Translations under genes and position numbers: made by a program
From: Pseudomonadota bacterium
Lineage (GTDB): Bacteria; Chloroflexota; UBA5177
NCBI GenBank assembly: GCA_021324655.1
Contig: JAJPIP010000046.1
Span: forward strand, 1 to 58,516
Direction: 5' to 3'
DNA: 58,516 nucleotides
Part shown: positions 46,575-52,263 of the stretch, one piece after another
Layout: each line of letters begins with the position of its first letter
Numbering within the stretch: the stretch's first letter is position 1
Notes under the pieces: model-generated
What the model was told of the DNA's origin: nothing
What the model saw: the letters and a program-made list of their open reading frames with translations, nothing else
Database searches by the model: none

Positions 46575-47441
46575 TCACGCGACGTTGCCCCGGGTCCCGT
46601 GACCCTCAGGGAGCGTTAGCAGGACGGCTACCTGGCGGTGCGCGCCGTCTGCGCCTTTCACGTAGCTGTATCCCGTCGCCTCGATGTGGTACAGGCCGTC
46701 ATGGAAATTGGTCCCCAGCCGGGCCAACTCCGCCCGCTCGTCCTGCTGGGTGAACACCTCCGCCACGAGGCTACTGGGGGCGAAAGCGACTCCCTTGTAG
46801 CAGGACCGGTCGGGCCAGCTGCGCGACGCTGTCCAGTGATCCACGCGTAGCCTGGGCTCCCCGGCGCCGCGGCGCTCCTCGTCCCTGGTGCGCCGCACCC
46901 GAGCAATCAGAAAGCAGGCGGGCGTGTCGGTCAGCTCCATCACACGCCGGGCAGTGGCCTCGAACGACCCCTCGAACTCCTTGCGGCACAGTTCGATTCC
47001 GGCCATCGACACTCCAACCTGCCTGAGGAAGGCCGTGAATCGCACTTCCGGCATGACCAGTTCCGTGCCACCCACGTCACATAGGTGCTCCTCCTCGAGC
47101 GTCGCGGCCGCGCGGCGGCCGACTTCGAGGAAGTACGTGTGTGTCACTTCGTGACCGAGGGAGATCACCCGGCGGCCACGCGGTTCCCGGTCGTCCAGCG
47201 TGATGACGTACCCGCCGTTCTCGCGCACGATGTAGCCCGAGCACCCGGTTGCAGCGGCGATCGGCGCCTCGCGGATGTCGCGCACATTGCGGAACGACGC
47301 GAGCATCCGCAGCGGCGTCGGACCACTGTCACGCGGGCAGACTGCCACCAGGTCCCGGCAGAGCTCGCGGATCACCGTCTCCGGGTCCGCGCCGCCATGG
47401 CGGCGACACAGTTCGAGCACGACCGGGTCCGTCCACTCCAT
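46575..47441 (-). CDS. CapP-like ImmA/IrrE metallopeptidase
   Basis: 288 residues with a zinc HEXXH motif, HEVTH at residues 97-101, and a nearby acidic ligand (TLEEEHLCDVG), followed by the ELVMPE helix typical of ImmA/IrrE. A separate C-terminal domain of about 130 residues follows. The gene begins 3 bp after the XRE repressor gene, and both are divergent from the CD-NTase operon. In CBASS systems a CapP peptidase is activated by DNA damage signals and cuts the CapH repressor. That role is inferred from architecture and position. Confidence 0.85.
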   Translation of the reverse strand: MEWTDPVVLELCRRHGGADPETVIRELCRDLVAVCPRDSGPTPLRMLASFRNVRDIREAPIAAATGCSGYIVRENGGYVITLDDREPRGRRVISLGHEVTHTYFLEVGRRAAATLEEEHLCDVGGTELVMPEVRFTAFLRQVGVSMAGIELCRKEFEGSFEATARRVMELTDTPACFLIARVRRTRDEERRGAGEPRLRVDHWTASRSWPDRSCYKGVAFAPSSLVAEVFTQQDERAELARLGTNFHDGLYHIEATGYSYVKGADGAHRQVAVLLTLPEGHGTRGNVA

Positions 47442-47444
47442 CGA

Positions 47445-47882
47445 TCACGCGCGCCGGAGGCGCCCGGTGTGCATGAGGATCGTGTAGTGGATCTGCTCCC
47501 ACTGCTCGGGCTTCGTCGGCGTTCCACCCCGGGTGCGAATCCCCGCGAGCATGTGGGCTTCATCTTTGGGCACGCGCTTGGCGCGGACGTACTCGGCGAG
47601 CCCGGGCGGCCATGCGCTCTCGTCCTCGGCTGGCGGCAACGTCTTGCCCAGCAGGTCGCCCACGGACACTCCGAGCGCCGTCGCGACGCTGTACAACGTC
47701 TCCGCCGAAGGTTTCATCTTCGCGGCTTCCTCGGTCCTCTGCGTCAGCTCCCAGAGGTAGCCCTTCCCAACGTTCGATCGCCGGCTGAGCTCACTGAGGC
47801 CGATCCCCTGGTCATCCATCAGCAAGCGGATCCGCTCCCCGACGGTCACGGCGTCCTTGAGCAACGCGTAGAGATCGGCCAT
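47445..47882 (-). CDS. CapH-like XRE transcription repressor
   Basis: 145 residues. The N-terminal helix-turn-helix (LMDDQGIGLSELSRRSNVGK, then GYLWELTQRTE) and SAETLYSVATALGVSVGDLL are XRE features. A C-terminal extension of about 70 residues could be the target of the paired metallopeptidase. A strong AAGGAGG site precedes the ATG. It is divergent from the CBASS operon with a shared 266-bp intergenic region holding repeated CGTA(C/T)TC half-sites. It is the natural repressor of the operon. Confidence 0.87.
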   Translation of the reverse strand: MADLYALLKDAVTVGERIRLLMDDQGIGLSELSRRSNVGKGYLWELTQRTEEAAKMKPSAETLYSVATALGVSVGDLLGKTLPPAEDESAWPPGLAEYVRAKRVPKDEAHMLAGIRTRGGTPTKPEQWEQIHYTILMHTGRLRRA

Positions 47883-50559: not shown

Positions 50560-51718
50560 TGCGCGGATTCACATCGCCGGCAGCGCGGCCGCCACAACGG
50601 TATCGGCGGACAGACTCCGCTACGCCCACAGTCTCATTGCCGCCCTGGTCGATCGCCTCGCCCGGGACGGCGCCGCATTCGTCGTCACCCCAGACCGTGA
50701 ACCGCGGATGGACCCGGATGACGAGACGTCGCCCGCGGTCGTCTTCGACTGGACCATTCTCGAAGCCATCGGGACGCTGCTCCAGGAGGGGCATGTCCCG
50801 GCCCGCACCGTCCTCGGCAAGCTGGCCACCGCCGTGGTCACCGAGAAGACGGACTCACACATCCCGCCCGATCGACGGGCCCTCTGGGAGTATCTGGCCG
50901 GCCAGGGCGCTCTCCGGCTCGAGTACACCGAGCCAGGCTGGACGTTCGGCGGCATCCGGCGCCAGCGTGCTGTGCGTGAGGGCACGCTCTTCATCCCGAT
51001 CAGTGGCGGGCAGGGGGTTGACCACTACGCCCAGGAGTACCTTGCCACGGGCAAGCCGGTGATCCCACTCGACATCGAGCTGGGTTCGAGCACGGACGGC
51101 CCCCACGGAAGGGCCGTGGCGATCGCCAAGCGCGGTCTGGCGGAGCCATCGCGGTTCGTCGAACTGGAGGACCCTGCCACGGGAGCCGAGTTGTTGGCTG
51201 GGCTGGCCACGAGGAACGGCGACACGCCTGCTGCCCGGGTGGTCGACGGCGTCGTCGACCTCATCAGGGCCATGAAGCCGCCACGGGTGTTCTACGTGCG
51301 CCTCCTCAACAACAAGCTCCCGGAGTATCCGGCAGTGGAGCGTTACTTCCGCACGGTGGTCGATCCGGTCGTCGAGAAGCTCGGCTACTGCGGCGTCGAG
51401 ATGGGTCACGAGGGGCCCACGAGCGCGTGGATGAATGCGGAGATATTTGAGCGGTTGCACCATGCCCAGGTCGTCCTCGTGGACCTCACGGGGCTGCGCA
51501 ACAACTGCTTCATGGAGATGGGCTACGCCTTCGGTCATCAGCAACCCGTGCTCATCGTGGCTCAGGAGGGAACTCATCTGCCCTTCGACTCCACCGCGAT
51601 CGACAGCCACATGTGGTCACCGACCGACCCGGACGACGAGCGCGCCCGTGCCCTCGAGAAGTACTGGCGGCGCACCATCGACCGCCCGGCACTCGTCAAG
51701 AGCCGGAGCCTGAGCTGA
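50546..51718 (+). CDS. CBASS effector: STALD/SLOG-like plus deoxyribosyltransferase/TIR-like domains
   Basis: 390 residues, ATG at 50546 inside the AAA+ gene end. The N-terminal half (about 7-180) looks like a STALD/SLOG Rossmann domain: RIHIAGSAA at the start, FVVTPDREP, and GTLFIPISGGQGVDHYAQEY followed by GKPVIPLDIELG. The C-terminal part (about 247-345) resembles nucleoside 2-deoxyribosyltransferase/TIR folds: VFYVRLLN, a helix, VVLVDLTGLRNNCFMEMGYA with candidate catalytic E324. It would sense the cyclic nucleotide through one domain and cleave NAD or nucleotides with the other. It is neither NucC nor a simple nuclease. Confidence 0.75.
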   Translation: MDVRNARIHIAGSAAATTVSADRLRYAHSLIAALVDRLARDGAAFVVTPDREPRMDPDDETSPAVVFDWTILEAIGTLLQEGHVPARTVLGKLATAVVTEKTDSHIPPDRRALWEYLAGQGALRLEYTEPGWTFGGIRRQRAVREGTLFIPISGGQGVDHYAQEYLATGKPVIPLDIELGSSTDGPHGRAVAIAKRGLAEPSRFVELEDPATGAELLAGLATRNGDTPAARVVDGVVDLIRAMKPPRVFYVRLLNNKLPEYPAVERYFRTVVDPVVEKLGYCGVEMGHEGPTSAWMNAEIFERLHHAQVVLVDLTGLRNNCFMEMGYAFGHQQPVLIVAQEGTHLPFDSTAIDSHMWSPTDPDDERARALEKYWRRTIDRPALVKSRSLS

Positions 51719-52263
51719 TGGCCGACGTCTACATCTCCGTCGACATCGAGACGGCAGGGCCAGTGCCGGGGTTGTACAGCATGCTGTCGCTCGGCGCGTG
51801 CAGGGTGGACGACCCCGCCACAGCGTTCTACGCCGAGCTCCGCCCCATCACGGATGACGCCGTTCCTGAAGCGCTCCAGGTCACAGGGTTTGACCTTGCC
51901 ACGCTCGCCAGGACGGGAGACGATCCAGCCGGCGCCATGCACCGCTTCGCCGACTGGGTCGCAGATACCGCGGGACGGGCCGTCTTCGTCGGCTTCAACG
52001 CGTCCTTCGACTGGTCGTTCGTCAACTGGTACTTCCACCGATTCCTGGGAGACAATCCGTTTGGGATCGCCCCGATCGACATCAAGTCCTTCTACATGGG
52101 GCTGTCCGGCGTCGCCTGGAGCGAGACGACCTCGCGGCGGCTACCCGAGAAGTTCCAACCGCGCTCACACGAAGGGGCGGAGCACAACGCCCTCACAGAT
52201 GCTCGCAGACAGGCCGAGATCTTTGCGGGCCTGCTGGCGGCGGCCCGAACCGACACCCGTTGA
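51718..52263 (+). CDS. DEDDh 3'-5' exonuclease of the CBASS operon
   Basis: 181 residues, start overlapping the effector stop (TGATG). DEDDh motifs: D9 and E11 in SVDIETAG, D98 in FNASFDWSF, and H156/D161 in EHNALTDARRQ. Such exonucleases (sometimes named Cap18 in CBASS classifications) occur as extra genes in CBASS operons. It may digest phage DNA or RNA, or degrade the signal. It is the last gene of the operon; no terminator is obvious. Confidence 0.88.
   Translation: MADVYISVDIETAGPVPGLYSMLSLGACRVDDPATAFYAELRPITDDAVPEALQVTGFDLATLARTGDDPAGAMHRFADWVADTAGRAVFVGFNASFDWSFVNWYFHRFLGDNPFGIAPIDIKSFYMGLSGVAWSETTSRRLPEKFQPRSHEGAEHNALTDARRQAEIFAGLLAAARTDTR

What the first reader, a model, noticed from the sequence alone, without database searches (positions are those of the whole stretch)
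46575..52263. Complete regulated CBASS type III unit on a mobile element with an unusual effector
Seven genes fit together: CapP-like peptidase, CapH-like repressor, CD-NTase, HORMA, TRIP13-like ATPase, an effector and a DEDDh exonuclease. The five plus-strand genes lie 3 bp apart or overlap. Known type III systems often use NucC as effector; here the slot is filled by a SLOG/STALD plus deoxyribosyltransferase/TIR-like protein.
Basis: partly seen in the sequence, partly recalled or inferred. Interest (0 to 1): 0.92.

Follow-up and report, generated by a model that had tools for sequence, protein, structure and literature searches.

The report
CBASS operon with SLOG-type effector
A complete, regulated bacterial anti-phage suicide operon on an integrated mobile element; its supposedly unusual killer protein belongs to a widespread, already catalogued class, although that class probably destroys nucleotides in a way I found no test of.

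Summary
Window 46575-52263 carries CapP-like and CapH-like regulators, divergent from a five-gene block: CD-NTase, HORMA, TRIP13, effector, Cap18 exonuclease. The block's genes are 3 bp apart or overlap, and catalytic residues are intact. It is a regulated type III CBASS unit beside a type III restriction-modification pair, on an element whose integrase abuts tRNA-Arg. The effector is not a one-off. It matches PADLOC's existing 'TIR' CBASS effector over its whole length and Pfam Cap17-like_N, a SLOG family listed elsewhere as TIR- and PNP-associating. Of 80 related effector loci, 71 have all five genes in order, seven have three or four (five of these cut by contig ends), and two archaeal ones sit in type IV CBASS operons. 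The model (pLDDT 90.6) has a ThsA-like SLOG sensor (Z 17.9) and a C-terminal domain nearest DNPH1/MilB nucleotide N-glycosidases (Z 13), with TIR folds close behind (Z 12.2). I read it as Cap17-like: a cyclic oligonucleotide opens a SLOG-gated N-glycosidase that drains a nucleotide pool. 'TIR' is probably the less accurate label. In 20 plasmid operons examined, Cap18 goes with SLOG effectors (11 of 11), not with others (0 of 9). New member of a known kind.

The parts
46575..47441 (-). capP-like M78 (ImmA/IrrE-type) metallopeptidase, 288 aa, GHEVTH zinc motif
   Evidence: PADLOC capP 9.1e-18 but only over model positions 5-165 of 242; Pfam Peptidase_M78 0.0005, just under its cut-off
47445..47882 (-). 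capH-like HTH repressor, 145 aa
   Evidence: PADLOC capH 4.9e-6; Pfam HTH_26 1.7e-5; same capP-capH order in the E. coli NucC operon L108
47883..48178 (.). divergent intergenic region, expected CapH operator and promoters; two exact GAATACGGC copies at 47908 and 47967
   Evidence: position; the repeat finder; no consensus sigma-70 promoter found here; operator not shown
48179..49135 (+). CD-NTase (CdnC-like), 318 aa from ATG 48179; G56-S57, D73, D75, D132
   Evidence: PADLOC cyclase 8.9e-95; NCBIfam CBASS_cyclase_a 2.4e-84; PDB 6p80 EcCdnC 3.3e-32; these residues conserved in at least 97% of a 95-row alignment
49139..49633 (+). HORMA (Cap7), 164 aa
   Evidence: Pfam bacHORMA_1 2.5e-30; PADLOC HORMA 7.8e-39
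49630..50559 (+). TRIP13/Pch2-like AAA+ ATPase (Cap6), Walker A GDVGTGKT, Walker B VIDEGD
   Evidence: PADLOC TRIP13 8.6e-110; PDB 6p8v 1.4e-57; K85, T86, D148, E149 conserved in at least 97% of 100 rows
50546..51718 (+). effector, 390 aa: N-terminal SLOG sensor (residues about 2-245), C-terminal NDT/DNPH1-like N-glycosidase domain (about 244-379), invariant D313, T315, N320, E324
   Evidence: Pfam Cap17-like_N 1.7e-35; PADLOC Effector TIR 1.2e-87; AlphaFold2 pLDDT 90.6; ThsA SLOG Z 17.9, DNPH1 Z 13.5; invariants in 42 sequences
51718..52263 (+). Cap18 DEDDh 3'-5' exonuclease, 181 aa
   Evidence: PADLOC Exonuclease effector 1.2e-73; PDB 7t2s 3'-5' exonuclease 3.2e-53; D, E, D, H, D conserved in at least 97% of 88 rows
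44163..46196 (-). neighbouring type III restriction-modification methyltransferase (not part of CBASS)
   Evidence: PADLOC MTase_III 8.3e-131
41692..44241 (-). neighbouring type III restriction enzyme (not part of CBASS)
   Evidence: PADLOC REase_III 3.6e-67
24880..26335 (.). left end of the mobile element: tRNA-Arg 24880-24955 (+) and tyrosine integrase 25052-26335 (-)
   Evidence: ARAGORN; Pfam Phage_integrase 2.2e-26

Best explanation
This is an intact-looking, transcriptionally gated type III CBASS system carried by an integrative element. In the resting cell CapH represses the divergent promoter region and CapP cleaves CapH after DNA damage (inferred; the CapH/CapP mechanism is recalled). 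On infection the HORMA protein binds and switches on the CD-NTase, and TRIP13 resets it (inferred from the known type III systems). The CD-NTase makes a cyclic oligonucleotide of unknown identity. It binds the SLOG domain of the effector and frees the C-terminal NDT/DNPH1-like domain, which cleaves the N-glycosidic bond of a nucleotide and drains that pool, stopping growth before phage matures. In outline it is a Cap17 whose PNP warhead is replaced by a different N-glycosidase. Cap18 is an accessory tied to this SLOG-effector lineage. Shown here: genes, operon, intact catalytic residues, conserved synteny, predicted fold of both effector domains. Inferred: signal, substrate, outcome, regulation.
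For: Family hits and operon; catalytic residues conserved; five genes in order in 71 of 80 loci; gene distances correlate, Mantel r 0.76-0.92 against at most 0.31 in 200 permutations (79 loci, four of them with PNP-type effectors compared over the SLOG part); SLOG fold Z 17.9 to ThsA with 3'cADPR; C-domain alone: Foldseek's first 41 rows all MilB/DNPH1/NDT/BcmB, VIA Z 13.3 DNPH1, 13.0 MilB; Pfam Nuc_deoxyrib_tr touched by 30 of 42 members and no TIR family by any, at E 0.1; PNP-type Cap17 and this effector share a PF18178-type SLOG and sit with one CD-NTase clade plus Cap18.
Against: Other SLOG/Rossmann proteins (TM1055, DprA, LOG) also score Z 12-14 on the sensor half, and ThsA is not among the 50 Foldseek rows shown for the whole model. 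No ligand, substrate or phage data. The SLOG pocket is only partly shared with PNP-type Cap17: 10 of 27 near-invariant positions. CapP matches only the peptidase part of its model.
Confidence: 0.6

Rival explanations
1. Same system, but the C-terminal domain is a true TIR-type NADase, as the PADLOC label says, and kills by NAD+ depletion like TIR-SAVED or PycTIR.
For: PADLOC 'Effector TIR' 1.2e-87 over the full length; weak profile match to PycTIR around the NxxxE motif, E 0.3; SARM1-type TIR Z 12.2. That TIR and NDT domains share a fold and a catalytic-Glu region is recalled.
Against: 0 of 42 members hit any Pfam TIR family at E 0.1 while 30 of 42 touch Nuc_deoxyrib_tr; the first 29 VIA rows and the first 41 Foldseek rows for the C-domain are DNPH1/MilB/NDT-type.
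Confidence: 0.3
2. The killing activity is the Cap18 exonuclease (PADLOC files it as an effector too); the SLOG protein is a sensor or a modulator.
For: PADLOC 'Effector Exonuclease' 1.2e-73; full DEDDh set.
Against: In E. coli upec-117, a Cap17+Cap18 type III system, catalytic-dead Cap18 did not affect protection, while protection depended on Cap17 (passages of PMC9122588). The effector keeps an invariant catalytic-type Glu/Asn/Asp set.
Confidence: 0.07
3. The five genes are CBASS but the capP/capH pair regulates something else, or is a remnant, so the unit is not damage-gated.
For: CapP matches only positions 5-165 of 242 of its model, capH E is modest; a crude motif scan found a divergent HExxH-bearing ORF upstream in only 41 of 95 loci, mostly longer proteins, of which the two I tested match PADLOC RmrA best.
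Against: Same divergent placement and order as the E. coli NucC operon (L108) and the Thauera NucC operon (L121); zinc motif intact.
Confidence: 0.15

Closest known systems
PADLOC CBASS effector PDLC00733 ('TIR') in type III CBASS
   Same: full-length match 6-389 of 390, 1.2e-87; same order HORMA-TRIP13-effector-Cap18 in the seven plasmid loci opened (Klebsiella, Moellerella, Bradyrhizobium, Mesorhizobium, Agrobacterium, Beijerinckiaceae)
   Different: 30-45% identity to 41 relatives; the C-terminal domain looks closer to DNPH1/MilB than to TIR
Cap17 of E. coli upec-117 type III CBASS (ATP nucleosidase, SLOG-PNP)
   Same: SLOG N-terminus, type III core, Cap18 (for upec-117; for four plasmid operons)
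   Different: PNP/MTAN-type C-terminus (on L103); in the four PNP operons seen the effector gene lies upstream of the CD-NTase, and a WYL regulator is annotated in one; here NDT-like domain, effector between TRIP13 and Cap18, CapH/CapP
E. coli MS115-1-type CdnC-HORMA-TRIP13-NucC CBASS
   Same: CD-NTase and TRIP13 match the solved proteins 6p80 and 6p8v; capP-capH placement as in L108
   Different: endonuclease NucC instead of SLOG-NDT; no Cap18 in the NucC operons seen
ThsA of Thoeris (SIR2-SLOG)
   Same: SLOG fold, Z 17.9
   Different: ThsA senses cADPR isomers (passage of PMC11204291); here the signal maker in the operon is a CD-NTase
DNPH1 / MilB nucleotide N-glycosidases
   Same: fold of residues 244-379, Z 13
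   Different: 13-15% identity, fused to a sensor, substrate untested

Membership tests
Type III CBASS | CD-NTase with intact GS and DxD...D active site | tested here: met
Type III CBASS | HORMA protein encoded beside the CD-NTase | tested here: met
   Pfam bacHORMA_1 2.5e-30, PADLOC 7.8e-39
Type III CBASS | TRIP13/Pch2-like AAA+ ATPase with Walker motifs | tested here: met
Type III CBASS | effector encoded in the operon | tested here: met
Type III CBASS | cyclic oligonucleotide made on infection and required for protection | not testable with these tools
   needs enzyme and phage assays
CapH/CapP regulation | divergent HTH repressor plus M78 peptidase upstream of the CD-NTase | tested here: met
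CapH/CapP regulation | full-length CapP including its C-terminal part | tested here: inconclusive
   match covers 5-165 of 242 model positions
Cap17 (SLOG-PNP ATP nucleosidase) | PF18178 N-terminal domain | tested here: met
   1.7e-35, over cut-off
Cap17 (SLOG-PNP ATP nucleosidase) | PNP/MTAN-type C-terminal domain | tested here: not met
   no PNP match in Pfam or NCBIfam; NDT/DNPH1-like fold instead
TIR-domain NADase effector | TIR family sequence signature | tested here: inconclusive
   0 of 42 members match a Pfam TIR family at E 0.1, but the PADLOC model named TIR matches at 1.2e-87
TIR-domain NADase effector | TIR fold | tested here: inconclusive
   Z 12.2 against 13.3 for DNPH1
NDT/DNPH1/MilB N-glycosidase superfamily | fold plus catalytic Glu at the helix after the third strand | tested here: inconclusive
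   fold Z 13, invariant E324 in NCFxExG; equivalence with DNPH1 E104 / MilB E103 (E104 recalled, E103 from the title of 4ohb) not computed residue by residue; Pfam PF05014 below cut-off
Cap18 | DEDDh exonuclease in a CBASS operon | tested here: met

The most novel reading that the evidence does not exclude
The CBASS effectors now labelled 'TIR' in this operon class are not NADases but SLOG-gated nucleotide N-glycosidases of the DNPH1/MilB kind. A ThsA-like SLOG pocket has been retuned from cADPR isomers to a CD-NTase cyclic oligonucleotide, and interchangeable N-glycosidase warheads (NDT-like or PNP) sit behind it, shared between type III and archaeal type IV CBASS. Cap18 is selected together with this sensor, perhaps because it clears linear products of that signal.
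Probability: 0.35. Interest if true: 0.6.

Novelty: new member of a known kind. Interest (0 to 1): 0.4.

Why it matters
It extends a defined five-gene type III CBASS class, with regulators, to a deep branch of its CD-NTase family, next to members from Planctomycetota, Acidobacteriota and Verrucomicrobiota. It points to a probable mislabel (TIR for an NDT/DNPH1-like N-glycosidase) that would change which metabolite one measures, and it gives two testable links: one SLOG sensor family with swapped N-glycosidase warheads, and Cap18 travelling with that sensor rather than with CBASS type III at large.

Tried and rejected
Rejected: that the effector is unique to this genome (88 relatives found, 80 kept); that the archaeal relatives lie outside CBASS, as my own HMMs first suggested: their neighbours are QueC, TGT, cyclase and OGG, i.e. 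type IV CBASS (that this set defines type IV is recalled). Right end of the element: no direct repeat of 18 bp or more joining the tRNA-Arg region to the rest of 24600-58516, so the boundary is unknown. Operator and promoters of capH: only a 9-nt direct repeat, some weak inverted repeats and no consensus promoter there. PDB sequence search with the effector alone gave only chance hits; HORMA gave none. DNA of the unit was not found in the four other genomes of the family searched, beyond one 27-bp match. Absence of a family from the VIA lists is not counted against it. The AU test that the PNP rows form one clade did not finish, so 'two placements' rests on the tree alone. Taxonomy of the host was not determined. 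No ligand-pocket comparison with ThsA coordinates was possible. On checking, L080, which I had counted as cut by a contig end, has 260 bp left after the effector and no trace of Cap18 in them, so it is told apart here.

Literature: ten searches, all in the CC0/CC BY/CC BY-SA PMC library. CBASS+TPALS, CBASS+'nucleoside deoxyribosyltransferase' and CBASS+HORMA+TRIP13+TIR+SLOG gave 0 papers; TPALS alone gave 4 unrelated ones; CBASS+SLOG gave 6, of which I saw passages of three and none of these passages treats this architecture functionally. Most subscription papers are not held; the 2015 comparative-genomics paper I tried by DOI is not held, and the CBASS surveys and the CapH/CapP, Cap18 and Cap17 primary papers are known to me only by recall or through the passages cited.
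Full report
WHAT IS THERE. Two lie on the minus strand, capP-like 46575-47441 and capH-like 47445-47882. A 296-bp divergent region follows, then five plus-strand genes: CD-NTase (likeliest start ATG 48179) to 49135, HORMA 49139-49633, TRIP13 49630-50559, effector 50546-51718, Cap18 51718-52263. The junctions are a 3-bp gap, an ATGA overlap, a 14-bp overlap and a TGATG overlap. PADLOC has a CBASS model for each of them. NCBIfam names the CD-NTase CBASS_cyclase_a, 2.4e-84, and gives no match for HORMA, effector or CapP.

ARE THE PARTS INTACT. In alignments of the window genes with relatives (95 CD-NTases, 100 TRIP13, 93 effectors of which four are PNP-type, 88 Cap18), the window carries the residue found in at least 97% of rows at CD-NTase G56, S57, D73, D75, D132; TRIP13 K85, T86 (Walker A), D148, E149 (Walker B); Cap18 D11, E13, D100, H158, D163. 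The effector keeps D313, T315, N320 and E324, invariant in 42 sequences. CapP keeps GHEVTH, but its match to the capP model covers only positions 5-165 of 242, so its C-terminal third is unassigned. Naming these residues as catalytic rests on recalled knowledge of the families.

HOW COMMON IS IT. A scan of genome contigs with an alignment of nine effector sequences gave 88 relatives, 80 kept. With profiles built from seven seed operons, TRIP13 is beside 78 of 80, HORMA 75, Cap18 75, CD-NTase 74; 71 of 80 have all five on one strand in the same order. The nine exceptions: five are cut by contig ends (L075, L082, L083, L101, L102); L080 has only 260 bp after the effector, without a trace of Cap18; L095 lacks Cap18 with room to spare; and two are archaeal (L025 Thermoplasmata, L026 Methanothrix), whose effectors follow QueC, TGT, cyclase and OGG genes, the type IV CBASS set (PADLOC). 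Complete operons occur under record titles of Pseudomonadota, Planctomycetota, Acidobacteriota, Verrucomicrobiota and Chloroflexota, partial ones under a Truepera and a Cytophagales; several are metagenome bins. It is still rare per genome: in 400 genomes of the window's phylum 12 had any match and 2 (the window's own and G355) a full-length one; of 398 in the phylum of G401 only G401 itself, chosen because it has the gene, passed the Pfam cut-off. The five genes evolve together: in 79 loci with all five (67 of the 80, the window, seven others and four PNP-type operons compared over the SLOG part; L077, L097, L069, L078 left out as fragments) pairwise Mantel r is 0.76-0.92, against at most 0.31 in 200 permutations. 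In all five genes the three nearest relatives of the window are L023, L024 and L096.

WHAT THE EFFECTOR IS. The N-terminal 240 residues are Pfam PF18178, Cap17-like_N (42 of 42 members). PMC10952713 (passage) lists PF18178 as 'TIR- and PNP-associating SLOG family' and ties it to Cap17, so the partnership of this SLOG with TIR-like domains was on record. The AlphaFold2 model (42 sequences, pLDDT 90.6) aligns residues 2-245 with the BcThsA SLOG domain bound to 3'cADPR (Z 17.9, rmsd 3.0, 185 residues), ahead of TM1055 (14.1) and DprA (13.4), and 244-379 with DNPH1 and MilB (Z 13.5 and 13.0). Foldseek alone put DNPH1 first (E 1.4e-4) and did not show ThsA among its 50 rows. The C-terminal domain modelled alone (pLDDT 84.6) gives MilB, DNPH1, NDT and BcmB in the first 41 Foldseek rows and DNPH1 13.3, MilB 13.0, then a TIR chimera 12.2 at VIA rank 30. 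The profile's best PDB sequence match is PycTIR at E 0.3, over the NxxxE motif. I read the domain as NDT/DNPH1-like with moderate confidence; TIR is not excluded by fold. Either way the chemistry expected is cleavage of an N-glycosidic bond of a nucleotide.

LINK WITH CAP17 AND CAP18. A plasmid search with the CD-NTase found 83 records. I opened 20 plasmid operons: seven from the effector search and 13 from the CD-NTase search. Seven carry SLOG-NDT effectors (in one, L018, no CD-NTase was found; in another, L016, it is unannotated and matches in two pieces) and four SLOG-PNP (two of the four checked, PADLOC PN-superfamily). Of the other nine, two are annotated NucC, five DUF6602 (one tested: PADLOC NucC 2.3e-108), one SAVED endonuclease and one 2TM. 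Cap18 is present in 11 of 11 with a SLOG effector and 0 of 9 without. In the CD-NTase tree the SLOG-effector operons and the NucC/SAVED operons split at 100/100, the window falls in a four-row deep clade with L023, L024, L096 (99/96) on a long branch of its own, and PNP rows sit in two places among the NDT rows. Rows left out: L069, L078, L077, L097 (fragments), L106, L095 (long branches, kept in the quick tree, where the window clade is the same). The bootstrap had not settled, the test for one PNP clade did not finish, starred branches alone force only one PNP origin, and the NDT rows were chosen by effector, so the Cap18 association rests on one deep split and a small hand sample. In E. coli upec-117, Cap17 but not Cap18 activity was needed for protection (passages of PMC9122588). 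A review says Cap18 occurs with CapW or CapH+CapP (passage of PMC10419184), so this combination too was known.

HOW IT PROBABLY WORKS. Steps shown: gene content, order, intact sites, predicted folds. Steps inferred from named relatives: CapH repression relieved by CapP (recalled); HORMA switching on the CD-NTase and TRIP13 resetting it (PMC9122588 and PMC10419184 passages); a cyclic oligonucleotide as signal; SLOG as its receptor, by analogy with ThsA, whose SLOG pocket is selective for 3'cADPR (PMC11204291 passage); nucleotide depletion as outcome, by analogy with Cap17, described as degrading ATP and dATP (PMC12043709 passage). The signal need not be the one PNP-type Cap17 uses: only 10 of 27 near-invariant SLOG positions are shared with four PNP-type proteins.

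SURROUNDINGS. A tRNA-Arg (24880-24955) is abutted by a tyrosine integrase (25052-26335), then Replic_Relax, TrwB-like, primase-like, VirB4/TraG-like, NlpC/P60 and TrbL genes. A type III restriction-modification pair lies just left of capP. The 25-nt tRNA 3' end recurs four times (two with one mismatch) within 16 kb of contig C78 and once (one mismatch) on C65, in stretches where ARAGORN finds no tRNA, as expected of attachment-site duplicates, but the right end was not assigned. GC is even across the window, 0.61-0.66.

VERDICT. Real, complete and regulated type III CBASS; ordinary in kind; the effector class is known by label, and I found no functional test of it in the searches I could run. 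The useful additions are the NDT/DNPH1 rather than TIR reading, the SLOG-sensor/Cap18 link, and the use of the same effector in archaeal type IV operons.

Noticed in passing
L025:3754-8099, L026:3789-7990: Archaeal (Thermoplasmata, Methanothrix harundinacea bins) operons QueC-TGT-cyclase-OGG followed by the same SLOG-NDT effector class: a type IV CBASS using a type III effector.
   Followed up: partly
L015-L021, L103-L108, L117-L123: Cap18 exonuclease present in 11 of 11 plasmid CBASS operons with a SLOG effector (NDT or PNP) and 0 of 9 with NucC/DUF6602, SAVED or 2TM effectors.
   Followed up: partly
window 24931-24955; L132 (C78:66000-85900); C65:11396-11420: The tRNA-Arg 3' end recurs four times within 16 kb on contig C78 and once on C65 without a tRNA gene, looking like stacked attachment sites of several elements.
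   Followed up: partly
window 41692-46196: Type III restriction-modification pair directly left of the CBASS regulators, with a DUF4238 gene at 40556-41953: a small defence island.
   Followed up: no
L016:2862-3926, L022:3562-4668 and others: Many relatives carry one fused HTH-M78 peptidase of about 360 aa divergent from the CD-NTase in place of separate CapH and CapP; the two tested match PADLOC RmrA best.
   Followed up: partly
window 50546-51280: The SLOG domain of the window's clade keeps FDWT and PLDxxxG stretches that look, by eye, nearer to PNP-type Cap17 than to the bulk of SLOG-NDT effectors, so it may be an intermediate form.
   Followed up: no
L106:4050-4859: Hymenobacter plasmid CBASS with HORMA and TRIP13 and a 2TM effector, no Cap18.
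   Followed up: no
window 52502-58288: LysM/BTAD-domain protein and Tad-pilus-like genes right of the CBASS unit; unclear whether inside the mobile element.
   Followed up: no
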